NCBI RefSeq assembly: GCF_028330965.1
Contig: NZ_JAQMUB010000032.1
Location: forward strand, 124,001-188,000
DNA: 64,000 nucleotides
Reading direction: 5' to 3'
Source: Oscillatoria sp. CS-180
Lineage (GTDB): Bacteria; Cyanobacteriota; Cyanobacteriia; Phormidesmidales; Phormidesmidaceae
The notes under the pieces are model-generated. The model worked only from the letters and a program-made list of their open reading frames with translations, did not search any database and was not told where the DNA came from. A program made the position numbers and the translations under genes. Of this stretch, positions 13,007-29,699 are shown piece after piece; within the stretch, counting starts at the first letter, position 1, and each line of letters starts with the position of its first letter.

Positions 13007-16000
13007 ATGGTGCCCGGCTCTGTACTTAACCTGTCTGACCTGAACGGCATTAACGGCTTTGTCATCAGCGGTATTGACCCGTATGACTATTCAGGAGCCA
13101 TTATCAGTGATGCTGGAGATGTCAATGATGATGGTTTTGATGATGTCATTATTGGTAGCTATGGTGCTGATCCGAATGGTCTGAGCGATGCCGGTGAAAG
13201 TTATGTCATATTTGGCACCGATCAGCCTTTTTCTAAGCGTTTTGAGCTTGCTGATCTGAATGGCGAAAACGGCTTCGTTTTGAGTGGTATCAATAGTGGC
13301 GATCGCTCCGGTCGGGCTGTTAGCAGTGTCGGTGACGTTAACAACGATGGGATTGACGACCTGATCGTTGGTGCCTATACCGCTGATCCGAATGGTCTGA
13401 TTCAAGCGGGGCAGACCTATGTCGTGTTCGGTAGTTCTACCTTGGGAACAGGTGGAAATTTTGCTCTATCTGACCTGAATGGAATAAACGGTTTCATCAT
13501 CAACGGTATCGCTCAAGGAGATCGCCTGGGGCGCCGCGCTGTTGCTGGAGCAGGCGATATTAATGGCGACGGTATTGATGATTTTATAGTTGGTGCCTAT
13601 GGTGCAAATTCCGAAGCGGGTCAGAGCTATGTGATATTTGGCGATGGCTCACTTGGCAAGAACGGTAACTTCGACCTAACGTCCTTAAACGGTGATAACG
13701 GGTTTGTTCTTAATAGTGTTAGATCAGGCGAGCGCTCAGGATTTGATGCCAGTGGTTTGGGCGATATCAATGGTGATGGCCTTGATGATCTGATCGTCGG
13801 TTCTCATGGAAGTGGAAGGGCCTATGTCGTATTTGGCTCGGATCAAGGCTTTTCAGAGAGCCTTGATTTAGCTGACCTAAATGGTATCAATGGTTTTACG
13901 GTCTATGGTTTTAGCCGTTCTCGTCGGAGCTTTGCGAGATCCGTCAGTGGGGCAAGCGACATTAACGCTGATGGTTTTCAAGATGTTCTGATTGGTGAAA
14001 GGGACGCAGGCAAAACATACATTTTGTTTGGCAGTGCTTCAGTTGGCAATGCTGGAAGCTTTGACGTCAGAAATTTAGACGGGAGTAATGGTTTCGTTGC
14101 CGATGGAGGGGGATTCAGCGCGGGTGGAACTGCCCGAAGCGCTGGGGATATCAATGGTGATGATATTTCTGACATTATCATTGGTGCCGATAGACTTGGT
14201 GGAACCGGCGGCGGCTATATCATCTACGGAGGAACCTCTATCGGTGAAACAGGCGTTCTTGATCTATTTGATATAGATGGCAGTGACGGCTTAACTATCA
14301 GAGGTGTCGATCAATTTGACTTCGCAGGATGGGCTGTCAACAATGCAGGTGACTTCAACAACGATGGTTTTGACGATTTCCTCATAACAGCACCCTTTGC
14401 AGATCCTGATAGGCGCTCTGAAGCAGGTGAAAGCTATATTGTTTTTGGCCGAAAACCCTCGCTTGTTTCCCTCGTCAGCAACGCTACGACAGTGGGTGAA
14501 AGCGGAGGAGTTGCTCGCCTTACCGTTTCTCGAAGACTAGAAGACATTGCTGGAGATCTCAGTGTTGGTCTTGATCTCAGCGGCAGTGCTGATGCTGCTG
14601 ACTATCGCTTCAGTGACGGTGTTGTCAGTGACAACACATTGACGGTAATTATTCCAGATGGTCAGACTAGTGTAGATGTCTTAATTGCGGCAATCGATGA
14701 CTCTCGCGTTGAGTCTACAGAATTTCTCGAAATTGAACTGACGCGCAGTTTTACATACGTAAATGCGCCTGAGAGCGATACTTCCACCATTGCGATCGCA
14801 GACAACGACCTCTCTGAAGTCAACATCATCCTGAGCATCCCGCAAGACGCTAAAAGCCGAGACCTATTCCAACTGGACGGCTTCACGGTACGCGCTCCTG
14901 GCCGCTTTGGCTTTTCCGTGAGCGATGCGGGCGATATTAACGGCGATGGTATCGATGATGTCGTGATTGGTGCCCCTGGCTATGGTTCTCAATCAACTGC
15001 AGGAACAAGCCATGTGATTTTTGGCTCAGACAAAGGCTTTGATTCTACTCTTAACCCCTCTGAAATAAATGGGAGTAATGGCTTTGTCATTAACGGTATC
15101 AATATTCGCGACAGAGCTGGTCAGTCAGTCAGCGGAGCGGGCGATGTTAATGGAGATGGTTTCGACGACATTATTATTGGCGCGCCTTTCGTTAATACTC
15201 CTTCTCATACCGACGTCTCTACTGGTGCAAGCTATGTCGTGTTTGGGGCAGCTCAGGGGTTTGGGACTAGTTTCAATCTAGCTGACCTCGATGGGAGCAA
15301 TGGTTTTGTCCTTGAAAAGCCCAGGGGATTTGACCGTATCGGTACTTCTGTCAGTAGTGCAGGCGATTTCAACAACGATGGAATAGATGACATCATTATT
15401 GGTGGACCCGGTACATACGGTGAAAGCTATGTCGTATTTGGCTCTGATAAGGGCTTCGATGCGTCTTTCGACCTTTCAAATTTGGATAGTCGTAATGGTT
15501 TCACCATCTATGGCATTCGGGGAAGGAATTTAGGAACCTCTGTTAGCAACGCCGGTGATGTTAACGGCGATGGAATAGACGACGTCATTATCAGCGAATC
15601 TGGTTTTAACAGTAGAAGCTATGTAATCTTCGGTTCTCATAAAGGATTTGACGATTCTCTAGATCTTGCCACTTTAGACGGTACTAATGGCTTTGCAATC
15701 TTTGGGACTGATAAATCTAATTCTTTGGGATTTTCTGTAAGCGGCGCAGGTGATATTAACGGTGACGGTCTAGATGACGTCATTATTGGTGCAAGAGGAG
15801 CAGATCCTAATGGTGAAAGTGATAGTGGAGAGAGCTATGTAGTCTTCGGTTCCGATGAAGGCTTTGATAGTGCCCTCGATCTCTCTTTGTTAAATGGTCA
15901 AAACGGCTTTGCCATCAGTGGTGTCAGTAGATCTGATCAGTCTGGCAGTTCTGTGAGTGGTGTTGGGGACGTCAATGGCGATGGTTTGGATGATCTCATT

Positions 16001-17788
16001 ATTGGCGCATTAGAGGAAAGCTACATCGTATTTGGTGCAGAAACCTTCGCCTCCCATGTTGCTCTTTCTGCGCTAAATGGCGATAACGGGTTGGTTATTA
16101 CTGGTAACCAGAGCAGTGGCTACTTTTCGAGTGCGAATAGTTTTGTTAGCAACGCTGGAGACATTAATAGTGATGGTATTGCCGATTTCATTGTCGGTTC
16201 GGACAGAAGAGGAGTCAGTCGAATTGTTTTTGGCTCTCCGACCCTGAAACTTCCACAAAACAGCTTTCTTGAGGGGGGTGCTATAACTTTATCGGTCTAT
16301 CGTAGCAATGGCAGTTCCGGCGACGTGGAGGTTGTCATTGATTTGGGGGGGACTGCAAACTTCAACGATTACCGCGTCTTTGGAGGGATTGTCGAAGATC
16401 GTCAGCTCAAAGCGATTATTCCAGACGGGCAGGAACAGACTGACATCGTTTTCAGGCTCACAGATGATGATCGAGGCGAAGATGATGAAACCATAACCGT
16501 TTCAATCTCTGACAGCTCAGCATACACGATTGGTTCTGAAGGGACGAGTCATATCACTATTGTTGATAACGATGTCGCTCCTGCTCTGGAAAGCATCACC
16601 CGTCACTTTCCTATTGATGCAGCAACCGATGCCGATACGCTGGTTTTCCGGGCAGCTTTCAGCAAAGCAGTTCAAAACGTTGGTGCTGAGGACTTCACCG
16701 CGATCGGGACGACTGCGACTGTTATGGACGTTACTCAAATGAGTGACTCAGAATATGACGTTATGGTCTCTGGAGGCGATCTTGCTGCTCTTACAGGAAT
16801 GGTTGGCCTCGATTTGGCCTCTACACAAGATATTGCTGACCTTGAAGGCAACGTGCTCACAGATAGCGAACCGCTCATTAATGAGACCTACACTGTTGCT
16901 AAACAGACGCCGCGATCGCCTGTTTTCACCTTCAGACAATATGTACAGTTTCAAGCTTTAGACGAAGGCGTTGTTCCTACCTTGGATGAAGAGCTTTATC
17001 TGCTAGCAAATTCCGATGTTAAAACGGCTGTTGACAGCGGTGACTTGCCGAATGGATTTCAGCACTACAGCCTGTTTGGGGCTTCTGAGGGCCGCCCTTT
17101 ACTGCCACTCAATCTTGAACTAGGTGGTCTCAAGATGGCGGACTTTTTTGATGAGACCTACTACCTTGCTCAGAATCCAGATGTTGCTAGGGGCGTCAAT
17201 CAAGGTTTATTCACCTACGGATTTGAACACTTTTTGAAATTTGGTTTAGCTGAAGGGCGTAACCCCAGTAGCTTCTACAATGAAGTGTTCTATTTGGAGA
17301 ATAACCTTGACGTCAAATCAGCTGTTAAAAACGGAGTTTTGAGTAGCGGATTAACGCATTTCGTCCAAATTGGGCATGTTGAGAATCGAATTGCTAGTGA
17401 ACAGTTTGATCCTCAAGATTATTTATCAAACCATTCTGATGCACAAGCAGCCATTGAAGATGGTGTTTCAACCAGTGGCTTCGACTATTATTTGGAACAT
17501 GGATCGGATAATGACAGGTTTGCTAGCCTGCTGTATGAGGAGGCTTTTTATTTAGAGCAAAATCCAGAAGTCGCTGATGCGGTCAATGCCAAGGATTTTG
17601 AGTCTGGTTTTGAGCACTATGTCAGCTTTGGGCAGCATGAAGGTCGCAACCCAAGTTCACTATTTGATGAAGGCGCTTATCTCCGCATGTATCCGGACGT
17701 TGCATCGGCTGTTGACAATAACAACTTATCTAGCGGCTTTGAGCATTACTTCCGTTTTGGCCGAGCAGAAGGTCGAGCACTTGTGTAA
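13007..17788 (+). CDS. giant FG-GAP/integrin-alpha-like adhesin with Calx-beta domains and C-terminal repeats
   Basis: The 1593-residue protein is probably a secreted or surface calcium-binding adhesin. Order: seven FG-GAP repeats, each with a D-x-N-x-D-G-x-x-D calcium loop (from DVNDDGFDD to DFNNDGFDD, residues ~1-480); a Calx-beta domain (~490-600); seven more FG-GAP repeats (~615-1075); a second Calx-beta domain (~1085-1185); an Ig-like segment (~1190-1305); and six C-terminal repeats of ~50 residues with the pattern YL-x2-NPDV and HY-x2-FG-x2-EGR. Seven repeats make one complete beta-propeller, so two whole propellers are present. No N-terminal signal peptide is seen, so export would be by a C-terminal signal, perhaps type I secretion; no exporter is nearby. 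No operon partner. Confidence 0.88.
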   Translation: MVPGSVLNLSDLNGINGFVISGIDPYDYSGAIISDAGDVNDDGFDDVIIGSYGADPNGLSDAGESYVIFGTDQPFSKRFELADLNGENGFVLSGINSGDRSGRAVSSVGDVNNDGIDDLIVGAYTADPNGLIQAGQTYVVFGSSTLGTGGNFALSDLNGINGFIINGIAQGDRLGRRAVAGAGDINGDGIDDFIVGAYGANSEAGQSYVIFGDGSLGKNGNFDLTSLNGDNGFVLNSVRSGERSGFDASGLGDINGDGLDDLIVGSHGSGRAYVVFGSDQGFSESLDLADLNGINGFTVYGFSRSRRSFARSVSGASDINADGFQDVLIGERDAGKTYILFGSASVGNAGSFDVRNLDGSNGFVADGGGFSAGGTARSAGDINGDDISDIIIGADRLGGTGGGYIIYGGTSIGETGVLDLFDIDGSDGLTIRGVDQFDFAGWAVNNAGDFNNDGFDDFLITAPFADPDRRSEAGESYIVFGRKPSLVSLVSNATTVGESGGVARLTVSRRLEDIAGDLSVGLDLSGSADAADYRFSDGVVSDNTLTVIIPDGQTSVDVLIAAIDDSRVESTEFLEIELTRSFTYVNAPESDTSTIAIADNDLSEVNIILSIPQDAKSRDLFQLDGFTVRAPGRFGFSVSDAGDINGDGIDDVVIGAPGYGSQSTAGTSHVIFGSDKGFDSTLNPSEINGSNGFVINGINIRDRAGQSVSGAGDVNGDGFDDIIIGAPFVNTPSHTDVSTGASYVVFGAAQGFGTSFNLADLDGSNGFVLEKPRGFDRIGTSVSSAGDFNNDGIDDIIIGGPGTYGESYVVFGSDKGFDASFDLSNLDSRNGFTIYGIRGRNLGTSVSNAGDVNGDGIDDVIISESGFNSRSYVIFGSHKGFDDSLDLATLDGTNGFAIFGTDKSNSLGFSVSGAGDINGDGLDDVIIGARGADPNGESDSGESYVVFGSDEGFDSALDLSLLNGQNGFAISGVSRSDQSGSSVSGVGDVNGDGLDDLIIGALEESYIVFGAETFASHVALSALNGDNGLVITGNQSSGYFSSANSFVSNAGDINSDGIADFIVGSDRRGVSRIVFGSPTLKLPQNSFLEGGAITLSVYRSNGSSGDVEVVIDLGGTANFNDYRVFGGIVEDRQLKAIIPDGQEQTDIVFRLTDDDRGEDDETITVSISDSSAYTIGSEGTSHITIVDNDVAPALESITRHFPIDAATDADTLVFRAAFSKAVQNVGAEDFTAIGTTATVMDVTQMSDSEYDVMVSGGDLAALTGMVGLDLASTQDIADLEGNVLTDSEPLINETYTVAKQTPRSPVFTFRQYVQFQALDEGVVPTLDEELYLLANSDVKTAVDSGDLPNGFQHYSLFGASEGRPLLPLNLELGGLKMADFFDETYYLAQNPDVARGVNQGLFTYGFEHFLKFGLAEGRNPSSFYNEVFYLENNLDVKSAVKNGVLSSGLTHFVQIGHVENRIASEQFDPQDYLSNHSDAQAAIEDGVSTSGFDYYLEHGSDNDRFASLLYEEAFYLEQNPEVADAVNAKDFESGFEHYVSFGQHEGRNPSSLFDEGAYLRMYPDVASAVDNNNLSSGFEHYFRFGRAEGRALV

Positions 17789-17851: not shown

Positions 17852-18760
17852 TCACTCCGAATTTACGGCTAAGTTAGACCACTTGGGATAGGCCAAGTTA
17901 TGCTTGGCAAATATCTTCTTCGCTCGCACGGTCAAGTCAGTTTTGTAGATAAACTCGTCGCGGGCGTCGAGGGGATAGCACTTTAGTTTGAACAGGCTGC
18001 CCCAGCTTTGGTCTTCCATAACGACGATGATCGGTAGACCCAAGTGGGTGTATTTGCTGGTGTGAGCAATGCGATACAGAATTCGTTTGACTAATTCCGC
18101 ATCGACCTCATGACTGAGATAAAACTCCGTGACAACCTGAGCTTCCAATTCACCCATATTGGCGTTGGAGACTGAGTTTGTCCAAATATGATTGTGGGGA
18201 ACGGTGACGATATTGTCTTCTGGTGTGCGAAGCCGGATACCCCGAAGGCCATAGCTCACTACCTCACCATATTCATCAGCAATTTCGATGCGATCGCCTA
18301 CTCGATAGGGCGTTTCAAACAGGCCAATAATGCCTGCAATCACCGAGCTAGCATAGTCCTTGAAGGCAAATCCCAGCGCGACAGCTATTGTTCCCGTCAC
18401 CGCTAACACATTCTCCTGAGACAGTCTCAGGAATAAGTTCATCAGTGTGATAACCGTAAGGGTAATGACAAAAGTCCGAGCAAAGGGTTGAAACTGCATC
18501 ACTTGCAGTCGATTTTCCTTGGCAACTCGTTCTGAAAGCCAATTAACCAGCCAATCCACAGCTTTGATGGTGAGGTAGGCGATGATAACGATGAACAACG
18601 CCTGAATGAGTTTAGTTCGGGTAATCTCAGTAAGAATTTCTCGGGTTTGATTGGCCGTATCGCTAGCCACCTCACTGGCAGCCTCGCCTGCGGCATCGGC
18701 GGCATCTTCAGCAGTGTCTTTTGCAGCTTGGGCTATCAAAGTGAAGAACATAAAGGTCAT
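17852..18760 (-). CDS. MscS-type mechanosensitive ion channel
   Basis: The 302-residue protein has an N-terminal polar, alanine-rich stretch (residues 10-45), three membrane helices (about 50-70, 85-110, 115-150) and the cytoplasmic beta domain. The pore-lining helix is recognisable in TGTIAVALGFAFKDYASSVI, followed by GLFETPYRVGDRIEI, the MscS hallmark. Its ATG is 3 bases downstream of the stop of the preceding gene, a 452-residue protein with a degenerate ATPase fold and winged helix, so the two are probably coupled. Such channels release solutes on hypo-osmotic shock; a gating role for the partner is only inference. Confidence 0.9.
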   Translation of the reverse strand: MTFMFFTLIAQAAKDTAEDAADAAGEAASEVASDTANQTREILTEITRTKLIQALFIVIIAYLTIKAVDWLVNWLSERVAKENRLQVMQFQPFARTFVITLTVITLMNLFLRLSQENVLAVTGTIAVALGFAFKDYASSVIAGIIGLFETPYRVGDRIEIADEYGEVVSYGLRGIRLRTPEDNIVTVPHNHIWTNSVSNANMGELEAQVVTEFYLSHEVDAELVKRILYRIAHTSKYTHLGLPIIVVMEDQSWGSLFKLKCYPLDARDEFIYKTDLTVRAKKIFAKHNLAYPKWSNLAVNSE

Positions 18761-18763
18761 CCG

Positions 18764-20122
18764 CTAGTCCTGAATGTTGATAACAAAATTGTTGCTTGCC
18801 AGTTTCCGCTTCAGTTGCGGGTAGTGCAGTGGATTGACCTTGAGGATGTGGTCGCGCTGCTCAATCAGACCACTGCTGCGTAAAATCTGAACGGAATTAT
18901 TGACCCACGGCGTCTCTTCTCCCAAGCTGTCAGCGAGTGCTGACAGCGTGAGATCTCCATGCACTAGCAGAGAATAGAGGATGTAGAGTTCATTCTGTTC
19001 TATTTCAGGTAAAGCGGGAAGTCTGGGCAGCTTACAGACAACATTATGCCTAAGCGCCACTTCTTGATCGCTATCGTTTGCCTCAGGTTTATGAGCAGCG
19101 TTAGAGGGTTCGGTGGTCTTGTCGGCTTTACGTTCTTTATCGTAGTAGATTGATTTGACAAATAGCTGTAGCGCGATGGTGCCAACGCCATCGGACAATC
19201 TTGCCAAGCGACGAAAATACTCTTGCCAGGAAGAATCCGAACCGTCGTCCTTTGCGGTTTCTGGGTTGAGCGATAGCGTATCTTGCTTCACACTGCGGAA
19301 TAGAGACCTCAAAAACACTACTGTTCCATCAATCAGCGCCACTGTTGTTTTTGTTGGTGACTCTGAGGAAGCCTCTTTCAATTCTTGAAGTCGCTCTCGA
19401 ATTGAGTCCTCGTCGAGTTGAATATTCAGGGTTTCAATAACCGGCATCAGCCAGTCCTGCATCTGCTGACCTGATAGCTTGGGCAGCGTAATGACTTCGC
19501 CACAGTGAGCCTGTAGTTTTAAGACGGAATTGAGGTATCGAAAACCTACCTGCCCACTGCCAATGATCCAAAATCGACGGCGATCGCCTAGCAACTCATC
19601 TCGCAGATAATCAATGCCGTCTAGTCCCTCAGCCGTTCGCAAAAAGCACCAACTCAAGTTAGGAATAACGGCAACGCTGGTACTCGGTTCTGCATCATCA
19701 ACCGCTAGCTTCTCTCGCAGCTTTGATTTTATTTCTTGTGAATCTACCGGACGCTCAACCCAATTCAGCGGGACCAGAGTTAATTTGTTCTCATCAGCCC
19801 AGTCTGTCAGACTCTCGGTGAGAATGCGGGCTACCGCAGAGACAGGACTGGCAATAACGATCAAGGAGTTGTTTGTAGCGCTAGGGTGTTCTTGCCAATG
19901 GGCGATCGCGTCAGAAAGAGCCTCTAAAACCGCACTTTTGCTGTCTGGATGACTCGGCAACTCGTGGACTAAGGTCTTGAGCTTTTGTTCGATTTCAGGC
20001 GGTAGCTCCGTAAGAGTTTCATTAACTTTGGACGGTTTCACCGGGTCCTTCGCCAGTCGCTTCATCCGAAAAGGCCGCTTTTTCAGGAGCCAATTCCTTA
20101 ACTGCTCAACCAAGTTTGCCAT
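18764..20122 (-). CDS. P-loop-like protein with degenerate Walker A and C-terminal winged helix, coupled to MscS
   Basis: I do not recognise this family. The 452-residue protein has a basic N-terminus, then an ATPase-like strand-helix pattern: SLIVIASPVSAVARIL stands where a Walker A loop (GxxxxGK[ST]) would be but has no GK, and VAVIPNLSWCFLRT takes the Walker B position without the usual acidic pair. The last ~80 residues read as a winged helix-turn-helix (LTLSALADSLGEE and QILRSSGLIEQRDHILKVNP). It therefore looks like a non-hydrolysing AAA/STAND relative that senses or binds rather than uses ATP. Start at ATG 20122; a TTG lies one codon before. It is transcribed into the MscS gene with a 3-base gap. 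Confidence 0.6.
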   Translation of the reverse strand: MANLVEQLRNWLLKKRPFRMKRLAKDPVKPSKVNETLTELPPEIEQKLKTLVHELPSHPDSKSAVLEALSDAIAHWQEHPSATNNSLIVIASPVSAVARILTESLTDWADENKLTLVPLNWVERPVDSQEIKSKLREKLAVDDAEPSTSVAVIPNLSWCFLRTAEGLDGIDYLRDELLGDRRRFWIIGSGQVGFRYLNSVLKLQAHCGEVITLPKLSGQQMQDWLMPVIETLNIQLDEDSIRERLQELKEASSESPTKTTVALIDGTVVFLRSLFRSVKQDTLSLNPETAKDDGSDSSWQEYFRRLARLSDGVGTIALQLFVKSIYYDKERKADKTTEPSNAAHKPEANDSDQEVALRHNVVCKLPRLPALPEIEQNELYILYSLLVHGDLTLSALADSLGEETPWVNNSVQILRSSGLIEQRDHILKVNPLHYPQLKRKLASNNFVINIQD

Positions 20123-20255
20123 CAATACCGCTTCTCTTTTCTAAAGCTGTTAAGGGTGAGACTGAAGATATTGCAATTCAAGGATGCTTAAAGTCACAGT
20201 CTGAAATTGCAGATAAGCTACTACGGCCCAATATCAATTTATCGCAGTATTTTCG

Positions 20256-20596: not shown

Positions 20597-21181
20597 CCTT
20601 AGCGGTTAGCGTTAGCTGAGGAAAAGTTGGGGAAAAGATACGATCGCGGCCTCGAAATTGCTGAAGCCGATATTCGCCATTCTCAAGGGTGTAAACCGAG
20701 ATGGCAGGTGTTTTTGGAGAGTCGATGTAGCGAGTTGCCCCCAAGGCCAGATAATGCCGATCCAATATTCCAGGATGTCTAGGGTTTCATACTCGGCGAG
20801 CTTATACAGATAGTCATCTCGCCAGTTAGTCGAACTGACCTCTACCGCTAATTGAATCGGGTCTTCTAAGGCGGCATAAGCCTTCGGTTCAGACATCCAA
20901 ACGGCTCTGTCAATCACACTCACGTCGGGAGTACGCCCCTGAATAAGACCGTCATCTCGTCGGGTTTTGACTGAGGCAAAACGCGAGATCTTATAGTTGA
21001 GGCGATCGCGCTTCACCTCATCACGAAACGCATCGTAGATAAAATCAGCGACGTCATCATGGGCTCGGGTTGCCATCAGTTGAACTCGCTCACCGTTGAC
21101 TAATTCATAGCGGTTGCCATCCTCTGGCGTTGTCTCCAGAAATTCAAGAAAGCTAAGCGGGGGAGCAATGGCTTGAGTCAT
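20565..21181 (-). pseudogene. Uma2-family (DUF820) nuclease gene with a frameshift
   Basis: The first ~142 codons (from ATG 21181) give a normal Uma2 protein: FLEFLETTPEDGNRYELVNG, GRTPDVSVIDRAVW, IQLAVEVSSTNWRDDYLYKL and ILEYWI. There the frame leaves the family sequence, and the expected C-terminus (YLALGATRYIDSPKT, then FRGRDRIFSPTFPQLTL) continues in another frame down to the stop at 20565. One missing base near 20755-20765 explains this. Uma2 proteins have a PD-(D/E)XK-like fold and occur in many copies in cyanobacteria; function unclear. A sequencing error is the alternative to real decay. Confidence 0.75.
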
Positions 21182-21267: not shown

Positions 21268-23487
21268 TCATGACAACGGTCCTTGCGAGTCAGCGGTATC
21301 TGTCGAAGAATGAGAAGCCTCAAGATGAGTATCTCGATGCTGATCAAGCACCCCATTCAAATAGCTTTGCATCTCTTCAGCCCCTGGATATCCAGGCAAA
21401 ACCTTTAACAGCATTTTTAAGTCATAAATAGCTTCACGAATTTTCAGAGAGGAAGGATCCTTTGAAATAGCTTCTTGATAAAAGTTTTGGGATTGCTCTA
21501 AATCTTTATTGATGAGGTGAAAAATGGCTAGACCAAAGATATTGTCTGTGTCTTCTGAATCCTTTTCATAATCTTCTTCTGCTAGTGCTATTACTTTAGC
21601 AATTGCGGCTTCAGCCTCATCAGATTTTTGCAGAGCTAGGTAAACAATAGCTTGTACACAATAAATGAGATCGTTGTTGAGACCAAGCTCTATGGCACGA
21701 TGACATTCCTCCAATGCTTTTTCGAATCTGTGCATCAGTAGGTAAGTAAAGCTACGCTGAGCAATCGCCCATTCGTATTCAGGATCAAGCTCAACGGCCC
21801 GGTCAAAATCAGCCAGTGCTTCCGAATAACGTTCTATCAACCGATATGTCTGTCCTCGTTTACTAATTACCCATTTGTCTTCAGGATCAAGCTGAATAGC
21901 CCAGTCAAAATCAGCCAGTGCTTCCGAATAACGTTCTATCAATCGATACGTGAAGCCCCGCTGAGCGATCGCCCAATCGTATTCAGGGGCAAGCTCAATA
22001 GCGTGGTCAAAATCAGCCAGTGCTTCTGAATAGCGCTCCATCAGTTGATATGTAAAGCCCCGCTGAGCGATCGCCCATTTGTATTCAGGATCGATCTGAA
22101 TAGCCCGGTCAAAATCAGTCAGTGCTTCTGAATAGCGCTCCATCAGTTGATATGTAAAGCCCCGCTGAGTGATCGCCCATTTGTATTCAGGATCGATCTG
22201 AATAGCCCGGTCAAAATCATCCAGTGCTTCTGAATAGTTCTTCATCAATCGATACGTAATGCCTCGACCAGCGAACGCCCAGGTATAGTCAGGCTTAATT
22301 TCAATAGCCTTATCTAGATCTGCCAATGCTTCTGAATAGCGCTTCATTGCTCCGTAGGCAGCACCGCGATTAGCGAGCGCGCGTGTGTAATTACGATCAA
22401 ATTCAACTGCATCCAGAAATACAGCTATCGTTTTACCGAAGCGTTTCACAATATGGCTGTTGGCTAATCTGTATTGTCCCAGGTCAAGCCTAGTTCTACG
22501 AGTGAGGTTAGCTAATGGTTTTCTATAGCGTTTTGTAAGCCGATAGGATGTACTCCAAAAAGCAATTGCTTTCTTGAAAAATGATTTTAGATAGGATCTA
22601 AACTGTCCTTCTTCAAAGCCTTCAAATTCAGCGATTGAGCGGTTGAATAGGTTAAGAGCATGGTCGTCGTGATCTTGCCGTAGTTCAATACGGCCTAAAC
22701 AGAAATAAATATTGGCTTTAGAAATCGATGTTAGTGATGAATCTTCCTCAATTGCCTCAGTTAACATGCTTTTGGCGATGTCAAGATTATCGCTTTTATA
22801 GAAACTAAAACCTAGCTGTGATTTCAAACTAGACTTAAGGTCTTGAGCGTCTTTATCTTCTGTCAAAACGCCAAAGTCATATTCCATCAGCAGACGCGGA
22901 ATAATATCTCGCTCGTCTTGTTGATAAAAGGCATTCTTTTTGGTGACTTTTTCTAACTGTGACTTAACACTCTCCGATAAACTCTTAAACCGAATCACCA
23001 CCATGCGCCAGGCCCAAAAATCAGGGGCGAATTTGGCGACGCGGTTCAAGGACTCGTCCGGCAGAAACATCAGAATGGGGTGGGGGACGCTTTCCGTGAA
23101 GCTGTTGCGGACCCAGTTCAGGTCTTGTAGGACGAGCGGGTAGTCGCCGACCATGCCGATGGAGGCTTCCAGTCCGGTCAGGAGCAGCACGAGTTTTTTA
23201 TTAGGGTCACGCTCAATCTTTGATAATTCTTTGACGAGTTCATCCCGCAGAAACCGGAGATTGGGATCGTCGAACTTGAGCTTAACAAACTGAATATCCT
23301 GACAGTCGGGATGCTTCTGGAGGGCTTTGACGATGGCAGCGCGGTCTTCGGGGAAGTTGGCGGAGACGAATCCTAAGGTGAATTTTTCTGCGGCGAAGTC
23401 TACAAATGTCACCAATTGACGAAAGGCATCGTCATTTGCCTGCAAAAACGCTTGGGTAGATGGGGATGCCGCAGAGTCAGGTGTCAT
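21268..23487 (-). CDS. TPR protein with N-terminal degenerate NTPase-like domain
   Basis: The 739-residue protein has an N-terminal ~210-residue part resembling a P-loop fold without a Walker A motif (LVLLLTGLEASIG at the Walker B place, then LPDESLNRVAKFAPDFWAW, a block I associate with cyanobacterial TPR-ATPase proteins). From about residue 365 it has eight 34-residue tetratricopeptide repeats, mostly of the form AIAQRGFTY-x5-RYSEALADFD. It begins inside the end of the upstream ATPase gene (11-base overlap), so the two products probably act together, with this one as partner-binding scaffold. Function not known; defence or signalling are guesses. Confidence 0.7.
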   Translation of the reverse strand: MTPDSAASPSTQAFLQANDDAFRQLVTFVDFAAEKFTLGFVSANFPEDRAAIVKALQKHPDCQDIQFVKLKFDDPNLRFLRDELVKELSKIERDPNKKLVLLLTGLEASIGMVGDYPLVLQDLNWVRNSFTESVPHPILMFLPDESLNRVAKFAPDFWAWRMVVIRFKSLSESVKSQLEKVTKKNAFYQQDERDIIPRLLMEYDFGVLTEDKDAQDLKSSLKSQLGFSFYKSDNLDIAKSMLTEAIEEDSSLTSISKANIYFCLGRIELRQDHDDHALNLFNRSIAEFEGFEEGQFRSYLKSFFKKAIAFWSTSYRLTKRYRKPLANLTRRTRLDLGQYRLANSHIVKRFGKTIAVFLDAVEFDRNYTRALANRGAAYGAMKRYSEALADLDKAIEIKPDYTWAFAGRGITYRLMKNYSEALDDFDRAIQIDPEYKWAITQRGFTYQLMERYSEALTDFDRAIQIDPEYKWAIAQRGFTYQLMERYSEALADFDHAIELAPEYDWAIAQRGFTYRLIERYSEALADFDWAIQLDPEDKWVISKRGQTYRLIERYSEALADFDRAVELDPEYEWAIAQRSFTYLLMHRFEKALEECHRAIELGLNNDLIYCVQAIVYLALQKSDEAEAAIAKVIALAEEDYEKDSEDTDNIFGLAIFHLINKDLEQSQNFYQEAISKDPSSLKIREAIYDLKMLLKVLPGYPGAEEMQSYLNGVLDQHRDTHLEASHSSTDTADSQGPLS
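22041..22244 (-). repeat. two near-identical 102-bp tandem units inside the TPR gene
   Basis: The 102-base units 22041-22142 and 22143-22244 are almost identical in DNA (each codes for three 34-codon steps out of phase by one unit with the next), and related units continue on both sides from about 21750. Near-identity in silent positions points to recent duplication of TPR units. Confidence 0.75.
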
Positions 23488-24826
23488 CGTTGTTGTGAGC
23501 TGCCGCTTCTTTGAAAGGAATGCTGTTCTTTACAACTGGATTCACGTAGTTCCAGCGCTTGCCGCCGCCTTCATATTCAAGGACTGACGTATTAAAAAGC
23601 ATTTTCTGCCCATCTTTATTTTGATCGATCCGTTTCGTTTTGCAGATCTCAGCCAGTAGGGAATAGTGATGGGAGGGGATGATGCGCTCGAAATTGATTT
23701 GCTCTTGCTGGATAGCATATTGCACATCGTCCGCCTCAATCTTTTGATGACCCCGCGTTGCCGCTGTTAGGCAGGCCATTGCCGTCATCTGCATCAGTTG
23801 ACGCACATGCCCACCACTCGCTGCCACGAGTTGAATAATTAAGTCATCATCTGAAAACACAGTTTTGTGCTCGATGCGCTGGGTGATTAGTTGGGCCAAC
23901 CGCTTGAGCGCGTTTAGCTCATACTTGGGATCTTGCTGACCAGCGGCATCGAACTGGTAAATGTTCACCATCGGCACCACGTTAGGAGAACCAAAAGTAT
24001 TGTTCAGATTTTTGTCTGAGTACACTACCGAAATCGGTACCGTATAAATCACTGTACATTTCAGCTCTTGAAGCTGTGTGGCGTAGTCGAAGTAGAGGCG
24101 ATCGCCCACAATCGGCGGCACCAAATCCAAGCTGTCAAAAATCACCAGATAGCCTTTTTCATAGCCGTGCTGCTGCACCCTCACAAAGGCATCTTCTAGC
24201 AGCAGATTCATGTCGCTTTTCAGACGACCAATATCCTGCTGCAAGGTTTCTCGAATCCGTTTCTTCTGAACGTTCGATCCCTTGAGCTGTGCGAGAAGCT
24301 TAGTCAGCAGCTTAGACAGAAAGGGGATCTCAACGCCTACTTCAGCGCTGGCGGTTAAGCTCACAGACTTTTCAACAGACTCTTCCGTCTCTTCTGTAAT
24401 CTCCAAAAACCACTTTTGGAAATTGGTCAGCAGCCGCTCATCGAAGGTGAGTCCCAGTTTGGCTAAGTCATCGGAGACCTGTTTGATGATGACTAGATAT
24501 AGGTCAGTGTAGTCCACGTCGCTGATGTCGGTTTCGCTATCGGTTTCCAGATAGATCACTCGATAGGTGGTTTGCCAACGCTTTTGTAAACGACGGAGTT
24601 CTGTACTTTTACCTGAGCCTCGGTGTCCGGTAAACAATACGCTACGGAATTGGCCGGGCGCTGCAAACTCCAATCGGGTGCTGACACTGCTGATGGCATC
24701 GCTGCTGCGAACCGCAGACAAATCAACGTAGTAACGCTGCAACGCTTCGTCTTTCAGCGGTCCGACGTCACAGAGTTGAAAAGCTTCCTTTAGCGTTTTG
24801 GCACGTCCTTCCGGTAAAGCAACCAT
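23477..24826 (-). CDS. AAA/STAND-like P-loop ATPase, partner of the TPR protein
   Basis: With the ATG at 24826 the protein has 449 residues. Walker A is TGHRGSGKSTELRRL (residues 66-80), Walker B LVIFDSLD (227-234); a helical segment with ASGGHVRQLMQMTAMA (sensor-2-like) and a terminal winged-helix-like part follow. The N-terminal block LKEAFQLCDVGPL and RYYVDLSAVRSS is shared with other cyanobacterial ATPases of this type as I recall them. The frame is open to an ATG at 24958, which would add 44 residues with a Cys/His pattern (CGLKH and CYSCRNPH) that could bind zinc; neither start has a good ribosome-binding site. It overlaps the TPR gene by 11 bases. Confidence 0.75.
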   Translation of the reverse strand: MVALPEGRAKTLKEAFQLCDVGPLKDEALQRYYVDLSAVRSSDAISSVSTRLEFAAPGQFRSVLFTGHRGSGKSTELRRLQKRWQTTYRVIYLETDSETDISDVDYTDLYLVIIKQVSDDLAKLGLTFDERLLTNFQKWFLEITEETEESVEKSVSLTASAEVGVEIPFLSKLLTKLLAQLKGSNVQKKRIRETLQQDIGRLKSDMNLLLEDAFVRVQQHGYEKGYLVIFDSLDLVPPIVGDRLYFDYATQLQELKCTVIYTVPISVVYSDKNLNNTFGSPNVVPMVNIYQFDAAGQQDPKYELNALKRLAQLITQRIEHKTVFSDDDLIIQLVAASGGHVRQLMQMTAMACLTAATRGHQKIEADDVQYAIQQEQINFERIIPSHHYSLLAEICKTKRIDQNKDGQKMLFNTSVLEYEGGGKRWNYVNPVVKNSIPFKEAAAHNNDDT

Positions 24827-28238: not shown

Positions 28239-29699
28239 ATGACGAAAACTATGACGCAAAAACGTCTATCTACTGGTGTTGCAGGATTAGACACCGTTCT
28301 CAGTGGAGGACTTATTCCGAATCAAGCTTATCTCATACGCGGGAAGACCGGCACTGGCAAGACGACTTCAGGGCTACATTTTTTGACTCAAACCAGCAGT
28401 GAAGAAACGGCATTGTTCATCACCTTGGGGGAAGCTGAAGCGAAGATTCGTCACAATGCCGAGAACTTAGGGTTTGATCTCACTAATATTCACTTCTTAG
28501 ACCTGGGTCCCTCTGCCGATTTTTTTGCCGCTGATAAATCCTACGACATTTTCTCACCGGCTGATGTCGAACGCGGATCAATTACCGAGCAAATCGTGCA
28601 GAGCGTTCAGACGCTTAAGCCTAAACGTGTCTTTATTGATTCGATTACGCAGTTTCGTTACCTAGCTAGGAACAGCTATCAGTTTCATCAGCAGATGCTT
28701 TCATTTATTCGCTATCTGATAGATGAGGGGGCCACCACGCTGCTAGGTTCTGAAATTGGGAATCTGACTCCAGATGACGATTTGCAATTTCTTAGTGATG
28801 GCATTATCACACTGCAAGCCTTAGATGATAGACGGACTATACAGGTCGACAAATTCCGGGGTTCTAGCTTTATTGAAGGGACCCATTCACTTCGGCTAGA
28901 CGACGACGGGATGTGTGTTTTTCCTCAACTAAAACCCGATAAGTTTCGCCGCAGTTTCGAACCCACTATCATTTCATCTGGTGTTCCGGCTCTGGATGAA
29001 CTGATGCATGGTGGACTTGAAAGAGGCACTATTACCATCATTACGGGACCAACAGGCGTCGGTAAAACCACCTTTGGTATCCAGTTCATGAAAGAGGCTG
29101 CGGGGCGGGGTGAACGCTCGGTGGTGTATACCTTTGAAGAGTCGGAAGCCAGTATCCTGCATCGCTGTGAGGCCATCAACATCCCTGTCAAAGCAATGGT
29201 GGAGCAGGGAACCCTTAACATTGACGCCGTTGAAGCATTAGCACTCACTCCTGAGGAGTTTGTTCAGGCTGTGAGACAGGAAGTAGAAAACCAAAACACT
29301 CGGATTGTCATGCTCGACAGCATTTCAGGCTATCGTCTGTCTATTCGCGGTGATAACTTGGTCAATCATATTCATGCCCTGTGTCGCTATTTACAAAACA
29401 TGGGTGTCACGACCCTATTGGTCAATGAAATTGAAGGTGTGACAGGAGACTTCAAAGTCACTGGTCAGGGCCTTAGCTATCTAGCTGATAACATTGTGTT
29501 TTTCCGCCATTTGGAGATTAGAGGGGAACTTCGCAAAGCGATCGGCGTACTGAAGAAACGACTGTCCAACTTTGAGCACACACTTCGAGAATTCGAAATC
29601 ACCCGCTACGGGATTAAAGTAGGCCCCCCCTTGTCCAATTTACGCAATATCCTAAGCGGGGTTCCAGAACAGATACCACCGTCTTCTCACTCTGAGTAG
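28239..29699 (+). CDS. KaiC-like double RecA ATPase (signalling paralogue, not core clock)
   Basis: The 486-residue protein has two KaiC domains. Domain 1: Walker A GKTGTGKTT (residues 35-43); the KaiC catalytic Glu pair is reduced to LGE-A-E. Domain 2: Walker A GPTGVGKTT (270-278) and an intact Glu pair in FEES (E300, E301). The segment matching the KaiC phosphorylation sites Ser431/Thr432 reads GLSYLADNI, so Ser is kept and Thr is Tyr. No kaiA or kaiB is nearby; instead a receiver and a histidine kinase follow directly, so it probably works with them as a signalling ATPase. AGGGG lies 4 bases before the ATG. Confidence 0.88.
   Translation: MTKTMTQKRLSTGVAGLDTVLSGGLIPNQAYLIRGKTGTGKTTSGLHFLTQTSSEETALFITLGEAEAKIRHNAENLGFDLTNIHFLDLGPSADFFAADKSYDIFSPADVERGSITEQIVQSVQTLKPKRVFIDSITQFRYLARNSYQFHQQMLSFIRYLIDEGATTLLGSEIGNLTPDDDLQFLSDGIITLQALDDRRTIQVDKFRGSSFIEGTHSLRLDDDGMCVFPQLKPDKFRRSFEPTIISSGVPALDELMHGGLERGTITIITGPTGVGKTTFGIQFMKEAAGRGERSVVYTFEESEASILHRCEAINIPVKAMVEQGTLNIDAVEALALTPEEFVQAVRQEVENQNTRIVMLDSISGYRLSIRGDNLVNHIHALCRYLQNMGVTTLLVNEIEGVTGDFKVTGQGLSYLADNIVFFRHLEIRGELRKAIGVLKKRLSNFEHTLREFEITRYGIKVGPPLSNLRNILSGVPEQIPPSSHSE

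What the first reader, a model, noticed from the sequence alone, without database searches (positions are those of the whole stretch)
21268..24826. Overlapping AAA-type ATPase / TPR pair with an inactive NTPase-like domain
An ATPase with intact Walker A (TGHRGSGKST) and Walker B (LVIFDSLD) overlaps by 11 bases a TPR protein whose own N-terminal half looks like an NTPase without a P-loop. Active-plus-inactive pairing with a repeat scaffold is an architecture often used in STAND-type sensors and defence systems, but I do not recognise this one as described.
Basis: partly seen in the sequence, partly recalled or inferred. Interest (0 to 1): 0.6.

Follow-up and report, generated by a model that had tools for sequence, protein, structure and literature searches.

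The report
Paired active and dead ATPase receptor
A working molecular-switch ATPase is made together with a partner whose own ATPase domain is dead and is joined to a repeat-built sensor; this gene pair recurs across many bacteria, often several times per genome, and in many relatives the sensor's binding face changes fast, as in immune receptors, though the function is untested.

Summary
In detail: a 449-aa AAA+ ATPase (Walker A, Walker B, SGGxxR and winged helix intact) overlaps by 11 bp a 739-aa TPR protein whose first ~170 residues are predicted (pLDDT 89.5) to be an AAA+ core without a P-loop. The pair is a conserved module. The genome holds five such pairs. Of 80 loci found with the ATPase alone, 71 have the dead domain in the next gene, including all 13 uncut non-cyanobacterial ones. 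Partners co-evolve (r = 0.89 against a permutation maximum of 0.09). The dead domain is an interchangeable head on TPR, nSTAND1-WD40, NACHT and NB-ARC proteins, so the pair works like a two-subunit NLR/STAND receptor. In 48 of 114 sensor genes (0 of 114 ATPase genes) the repeats are near-identical at DNA level, with amino-acid changes concentrated on the ligand-binding face; the window's own array is only mildly so. No recurrent defence gene lies nearby, no effector domain was seen, and one class sits beside ftsQ-ftsZ. Best reading: an ATP-gated sensor of variable, probably non-self, ligands. It is a new variant of the known active-plus-inactive STAND pairing (nSTAND2, BREX, iSTAND systems). 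Defence is plausible, not shown.

The parts
23477..24826 (-). AAA+ ATPase, 449 aa (P0001): STAND/ORC-Cdc6-like core, lid, winged helix
   Evidence: Translation; AF2 pLDDT 93.7, pTM 0.92; Cdc6 Z 15.7 (rmsd 6.9, 280 aligned), Orc1/Cdc6 2qby Z 15.3 (4.6, 274), PABY2304 Z 14.8 (4.5, 295), CED-4 Z 13.5 (4.8, 287)
24602..24631 (-). Walker A TGHRGSGKST (aa 66-75)
   Evidence: P-loop present in 46 of 46 homologues
24125..24148 (-). Walker B LVIFDSLD (aa 227-234)
   Evidence: D231, L233 invariant, D234 at least 90% conserved in 46 homologues
23801..23818 (-). Sensor-2-like SGGHVR (aa 337-342) in the lid
   Evidence: G338, G339, R342 invariant in alignment A3
23543..23668 (-). Winged-helix region (aa 387-428)
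   Evidence: Helix-helix-strand-strand in the model; matched by Cdc6/ORC alignments that run to the C-terminus
23477..23487 (-). 11-base overlap of the two genes
   Evidence: eight of 114 surveyed pairs share exactly this overlap
21268..23487 (-). Partner protein, 739 aa (P0002): P-loop-less AAA+ head, linker, TPR array
   Evidence: Translation; Pfam TPR_1 E 6e-62
22984..23487 (-). P-loop-less AAA+ (pseudo-ATPase) head, about aa 1-168; invariant R127, A154, D156
   Evidence: AF2 and fold search; no P-loop in 46 of 46; invariant residues
21746..22347 (-). 5.9 tandem 102-bp repeats coding near-identical 34-aa TPRs
   Evidence: TRF 81% matches, no indels

Best explanation
The two genes make a two-subunit receptor that works like an NLR/STAND switch. 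Shown: the first protein has every motif of a working AAA+ ATPase of the ORC/Cdc6-STAND type; the second carries a predicted AAA+ core without nucleotide-binding motifs, followed by a TPR array; the two are inherited and co-evolve as a unit; the dead domain is an exchangeable head on TPR, nSTAND1-WD40, NACHT and NB-ARC proteins. Inferred: the dead head docks onto the active ATPase, as catalytically dead subunits do in ORC or clamp loaders, tying ATP binding in one protein to ligand binding by the repeats of the other. When the repeats bind a ligand, the ATPase is released or assembled and signals onward, perhaps through its winged helix or a third factor. Because repeats in many family members turn over by recombination and vary mainly at ligand-contacting positions, the ligand is probably fast-changing and foreign (invader or non-kin). 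The output is unknown.
For: Five ATPase paralogues in the genome, each directly followed by a gene with the dead domain, found by separate searches. 71 of 80 loci retrieved with the ATPase alone have the dead domain next on the same strand, including 13 of 13 uncut loci from Chloroflexota, Acidobacteria, Planctomycetes, proteobacterial groups and a Methanothrix bin. Both genes in 66 of 292 cyanobacterial genomes, against about 16 expected if independent (67 and 71). Where pairs are split, the same genome carries both orphans of the same class. Mirror-tree r 0.886 over 107 pairs, permutation maximum 0.09; true pairing ranks first of 120 within this genome. Interchangeable receptor backbones. 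Structures. Repeat turnover in 48/114 sensor genes and 0/114 ATPases; WD40 arrays L097/L098 pN/pS 1.54; positions 5, 7 and 23 after GH are the three most variable in three of five WD40 arrays and in the top seven of all five; TPR positions 2, 5, 9, 12 hold 25% of nonsynonymous against 12% of synonymous changes over 26 arrays, reached by 0.3% of random sets. Fungal NLR repeats behave alike (PMC4986451).
Against: No complex was modelled or measured. No recognised effector domain in either protein. No recurrent defence neighbours. The nSTAND1-WD40 class is fixed beside ftsQ-ftsZ in about 10 lineages. The window's own TPR array is less extreme (82% identity, pN/pS 0.43). Position 31, outside the canonical contact set, is also variable in TPRs. 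The 26 arrays are not phylogenetically independent, and the diversity tests were not corrected for gene conversion.
Confidence: 0.55

Rival explanations
1. An internal regulatory switch, not immunity: the pair senses a cell-own protein or stress signal through its repeats and controls a physiological process such as division or envelope homeostasis.
For: The nSTAND1-WD40 class is fixed beside ftsQ-ftsZ in about 10 independent clusters; other copies lie beside cytochrome biogenesis, leuA and gltX genes; no recurrent defence neighbours; STAND ATPases also act as transcription regulators (general knowledge).
Against: Present in only 66 of 292 cyanobacterial genomes, with 1-9 copies; window-class copies are missing in some congeners; plasmid copies; diversifying repeat faces in many relatives.
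Confidence: 0.25
2. The dead head is itself the sensor: like other inactive STAND domains it is proposed to bind foreign nucleic acid, and the repeats only scaffold the complex.
For: This role is proposed for iSTAND domains of MoxR-vWA and BREX systems (PMC8195603, PMC12839542); the ORC/Cdc6-like fold of both proteins is compatible with DNA binding.
Against: The head keeps invariant residues R127, A154, D156 and co-evolves with the ATPase, as expected of a protein interface, whereas diversity lies in the repeats. [quoted passage not shown]
Confidence: 0.12
3. A chaperone/co-chaperone remodeller: the AAA+ ATPase remodels client proteins brought by the TPR partner, as in R2TP-like assemblies.
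For: AAA+ plus TPR partnership; RuvBL structures are among the weaker fold hits.
Against: Same head with NACHT, NB-ARC and nSTAND1-WD40 receptors; STAND-type Walker B and winged helix rather than pore-loop chaperone features; variable repeat faces.
Confidence: 0.08

Closest known systems
nSTAND2 two-gene systems (Kaur et al. 2021, PMC8195603, Fig. 6C)
   Same: Two-gene operon of an active and an inactive STAND ATPase, the inactive one fused to variable modules
   Different: There the inactive member carries mostly GT4 or HEPN domains, which were not seen here; here it is a small P-loop-less head fused to TPR, nSTAND1-WD40, NACHT or NB-ARC, and profile comparison does not place both modules in one family. 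Their alignment was not available, so kinship could not be tested.
[quoted passage not shown] 2020, PMC7159879)
   Same: P-loop-less STAND/AAA+ domain next to an active AAA+; in G167 this very ATPase family is fused to the vWA-L linker of such an operon (L067)
   Different: The head does not match PF19995 although the true iSTAND in L067 does at 1e-20; no MoxR or vWA gene next to the window pair
BREX BrxB/BrxF inactive STAND with BrxC ATPase (PMC12839542)
   Same: Inactive STAND/ORC-Cdc6 subunit working with an active ORC/Cdc6-clade AAA+ ATPase
   Different: No BREX model among the matches of the five window genes scanned with PADLOC; the cap-like beta-sheet insert described for BrxB is not evident in the modelled head (five core strands)
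Fungal and bacterial NLR/STAND receptors (NACHT or NB-ARC with WD40 or TPR)
   Same: Receptor grammar; near-identical repeats with variation on the binding face (PMC4986451)
   Different: The switch is split over two proteins and, in TPR-only members such as the window's, the receptor has no working nucleotide-binding domain of its own
ORC, clamp loaders and Rif2
   Same: Mixed complexes of active and dead AAA+ subunits; best fold matches include ORC3, RFC and Rif2
   Different: Replication or telomere roles; no sequence kinship shown

Membership tests
STAND/ORC-Cdc6 clade of AAA+ (the ATPase) | P-loop and Walker B in an AAA+ core | tested here: met
   46 of 46 with P-loop, 45 of 46 with hhhhDxLD by pattern
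STAND/ORC-Cdc6 clade of AAA+ (the ATPase) | Helical lid with conserved Arg followed by a winged helix | tested here: met
   SGGxxR conserved; model topology and Cdc6/ORC/CED-4 matches over most of the chain
STAND/ORC-Cdc6 clade of AAA+ (the ATPase) | Above-threshold match to a curated Pfam family | tested here: not met
   Window ATPase is below all cut-offs; three of its four own-genome paralogues just pass the KAP_NTPase cut-off of 20 bits (21.3, 21.1, 26.7)
Inactive STAND/AAA+ domain (the head), broad sense | AAA+ fold without Walker motifs | tested here: met
iSTAND PF19995 (MoxR-vWA systems) | Match to the PF19995 profile | tested here: not met
   Not listed for P0002 at E up to 10; positive control in L067 at 1.4e-20
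iSTAND PF19995 (MoxR-vWA systems) | Adjacent MoxR and vWA genes | tested here: not met
   None among the window neighbours scanned; present only at L067
nSTAND2 two-gene system | Inactive STAND fused to GT4 or HEPN effector | tested here: inconclusive
   None in the second genes read one by one; the census of 64 lists only the 25 commonest of 109 families
nSTAND2 two-gene system | Both modules of one STAND family, both with an arginine finger | tested here: inconclusive
   hhalign between the two modules not significant; arginine fingers not assigned; published alignment not available
Known defence systems (PADLOC 2023) | Strong match to a system model | tested here: not met
   Best hit of the ATPase is mad8 at E 1.2e-4; P0002 hits are TPR models only
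NLR-like STAND receptor | Exchangeable head, nucleotide switch and repeat sensor | tested here: met
   Met by the pair taken together and by nSTAND1, NACHT and NB-ARC members; TPR-only members lack an own active switch
NLR-like STAND receptor | Ligand-driven ATP-dependent oligomerisation | not testable with these tools
   Needs biochemistry
Cyanobacterial housekeeping pair | Present in all or nearly all cyanobacteria | tested here: not met
   Both genes in 66 of 292 genomes

The most novel reading that the evidence does not exclude
A widespread, undescribed family of split NLRs: a dedicated AAA+ ATPase and a repeat receptor joined through a dead AAA+ head that acts as a universal adaptor for TPR, WD40-nSTAND1, NACHT and NB-ARC sensors. 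Cyanobacteria carry up to about nine or more such receptors per genome, with repeat faces diversifying for recognition of phages or non-kin cells.
Probability: 0.3. Interest if true: 0.85.

Novelty: new variant of a known kind. Interest (0 to 1): 0.62.

Why it matters
Catalytically dead STAND/AAA+ domains recur in conflict systems but their role is debated (nucleic-acid receptor, regulator or adaptor). Here a dead domain is tied one-to-one to an active partner ATPase across phyla and heads many receptor types, which makes the adaptor idea directly testable with two small proteins. If the repeats bind variable foreign ligands, this is a multi-copy receptor repertoire in bacteria with the design and evolutionary behaviour of fungal and plant NLRs.

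Tried and rejected
Profile-profile comparison of head and ATPase: not significant, so recent duplication of one from the other is not claimed. PDB sequence profiles: only generic P-loop hits for the ATPase, nothing for the head. NCBIfam: only sub-threshold matches (Sll1717 family, DS41 anti-phage protein). N-terminal extensions of some ATPase ORFs (L136, L146, L176) look like upstream-start artefacts in GC-rich DNA, not effector domains. Defence-island test: 132 flanking proteins matched 116 PADLOC families, no family in more than 4 proteins, against 43 families in 128 control proteins; the larger number comes partly from many methyltransferase models hitting one protein, so it is neither proof nor disproof. 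Viral contigs and phages: no relative. RNA families: none in 15-31 kb. Conserved third gene: none found. Fusion of ATPase and head in one ORF: none. vWA-L survey: of the vWA-L proteins retrieved, only L067/L207 carries the ATPase; the others mostly carry FGS.
Full report
Observation. The two reverse-strand ORFs are as described: ATPase 23477-24826 and TPR protein 21268-23487, overlapping by 11 bases. Walker A and B are intact. No Pfam, NCBIfam or PADLOC family is convincingly reached by the ATPase. The partner's TPRs are strong Pfam hits; its N-terminus has none.

The pair is a unit. The window lies in a cyanobacterial genome of 6.5 Mb, contig C70. A search of that genome with the ATPase gave five clear copies; an independent search with only the partner's N-domain gave five hits, each directly downstream of one of the five ATPases. 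The other second genes are head-TPR (C21, C83), head-TPR-nSTAND1 (C57, 1006 aa) and head-TPR-nSTAND1-TM-WD40 (C3, 1741 aa). Over 292 cyanobacterial genomes, 67 hold the ATPase, 71 the head and 66 both (overlap counted from the listed handles). In the truncated hit lists 105 of 150 heads have the ATPase upstream on the same strand, 66 within 60 bp; only one ATPase lies within 6 kb in any other arrangement. Of 20 apparently unpaired heads re-read, 10 were paired after all.

Split pairs. The remaining orphan heads are mostly of the nSTAND1-WD40 class, and the same genomes carry orphan ATPases whose closest relatives are partnered with that class. So the two are kept together even when separated.

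Beyond cyanobacteria. A scan of 84,980 species genomes with the ATPase alignment alone returned 80 loci (best 80 kept); 71 have the head in the next gene on the same strand. These include Thermoflexus, Anaerolineae, Acidobacteria, Planctomycetes, Methylococcaceae, Competibacteraceae, Deltaproteobacteria, Desulfobacteraceae and a Methanothrix bin; the Verrucomicrobia contig ends just after the ATPase. Most of these are metagenome bins, so individual assignments, the archaeal one above all, need care. Closest relative: Phormidesmis priestleyi, 71% identity. Of 114 pairs, 63 overlap and eight share exactly the 11-base overlap (starts are mechanical, so overlap lengths are approximate).

Co-evolution. 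Distances among 107 ATPases and among their partner heads correlate at 0.886; the best of 500 permutations reaches 0.09. Among the five pairs of this genome the true pairing ranks first of 120, an effect species phylogeny alone cannot give.

Structure. The ATPase model (pLDDT 93.7) is an AAA+ core with a long helical insert, lid and winged helix; best VIA-align matches are Cdc6 1fnn (Z 15.7, rmsd 6.9, 280 aligned), Orc1/Cdc6 2qby (15.3, 4.6, 274), PABY2304 (14.8, 4.5, 295), TnsC (14.5, 3.9, 292), NRC4 (13.8, 4.7, 287) and CED-4 (13.5, 4.8, 287); neighbouring rows are tied. The head model (pLDDT 89.5) is a five-strand AAA+ core: TnsC Z 11.5 (3.9, 159), ORC3 10.6 (6.0, 187), Cdc6 10.3 (4.0, 148); Foldseek adds RFC, NSF and Rif2. 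None of 46 heads has a P-loop; R127, A154 and D156 (P0002 numbering) are invariant or nearly so in 46 heads and, with the corresponding residues, invariant across 64 longer partners. These are predictions; a shared fold does not show function.

Interchangeable receptor backbones. The head precedes TPR arrays (55 of 64 shorter second genes), nSTAND1 (9 of 64, plus the long nSTAND1-WD40 class), DUF4062-NACHT-FGE (L143), NNH1-NACHT (L137) and NB-ARC-TPR (L140). Short stand-alone heads also occur (L078-L080). That is how an adaptor domain of NLR-like receptors behaves. No TIR, protease or nuclease domain was seen in the proteins read one by one. In one cyanobacterium (G167) the ATPase is fused to the vWA-L linker, the effector slot, of an iSTAND-MoxR-vWA operon; that copy is 93-94% identical to ATPases paired with nSTAND1-WD40 receptors in related genomes. 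This is one case only.

Sensor diversification. 48 of 114 second genes but 0 of 114 ATPase genes contain tandem repeats of period 60 bp or longer. In WD40 arrays L097 and L098 pN/pS between units is 1.54, with changes concentrated at positions 5, 7 and 23 after GH; these positions are the top three in L097, L098 and L164 and in the top seven of all five WD40 arrays. In 26 TPR arrays, positions 2, 5, 9 and 12 hold 25% of nonsynonymous but 12% of synonymous differences, reached by 0.3% of random four-position sets; adding 6 and 13 gives 37% against 17%. That these are ligand-contact positions is general knowledge of the folds; fungal NLR repeats show the same pattern (PMC4986451). Limits: arrays are not independent, position 31 is also variable, and the window's own array is less extreme (82% identity, pN/pS 0.43).

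Genomic context. No conserved third gene and no recurrent defence gene was found. The nSTAND1-WD40 class lies divergently beside ftsQ-ftsZ (named here from sequence motifs) in about 10 independent clusters, that is, it is vertically stable. The window's class is accessory: present at 50-61% identity in some relatives, missing in others, and neighbouring genes of the window are likewise poorly conserved. Seven cyanobacterial plasmid records carry relatives, one beside an integrase and HicAB on a conjugative plasmid; none was found in phages or viral contigs.

Interpretation. The best-supported mechanism is a two-subunit STAND switch: dead head as adaptor, active ATPase as switch, repeats as sensor. 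Complex formation is inferred from co-inheritance and co-evolution, not shown. A role in sensing variable foreign ligands is inferred from repeat evolution in relatives. The output is unknown. Known parallels are the nSTAND2 two-gene systems, the iSTANDs of MoxR-vWA systems and BrxB of BREX; this family failed the PF19995 test and could not be tested for nSTAND2 kinship. I found no paper describing it in the open-access text searched, but supplementary tables could not be read, so prior listing there is possible.

Noticed in passing
window 18764-20125 (-) with 17852-18760 (-): A 453-aa protein with an NTPase-like N-terminal region without an evident P-loop and a C-terminal MarR/TrmB-like winged helix (weak hits only), directly followed by an MscS-type channel gene; relatives of about 400-450 aa occur in 12 of 24 related genomes. 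Possibly another dead-NTPase regulator.
   Followed up: partly
window 20612-21181 (-): Uma2 family putative nuclease gene just downstream of the pair (Pfam E 5e-19; PADLOC candidate PDC-S03 E 5e-40); PDC-S03 models also hit control regions.
   Followed up: partly
window 13007-17788 (+): 1593-aa protein with many FG-GAP-like repeats (VGDVNGDGIDD motifs), by eye, and a C-terminal repeated domain.
   Followed up: no
window 28239-29699 (+): Two-domain KaiC-like ATPase (Pfam E 4e-71) followed by a receiver-like protein; a close homologue was found in only one of 14 relatives searched.
   Followed up: partly
L067:1390-6609: iSTAND-MoxR-vWA(CoxE)-[vWA-L + this ATPase family] operon in genome G167; elsewhere the vWA-L slot holds FGS, FHA, pentapeptide-TM, TPR, TIR or GUN4-like modules.
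   Followed up: yes
L116:11673-12923: Third gene after a pair (Gomphosphaeria) encodes yet another P-loop AAA/STAND-like ATPase.
   Followed up: no
L099:5369-8264: Two tandem copies of the ATPase before one head gene, whose TPR part is broken off.
   Followed up: no
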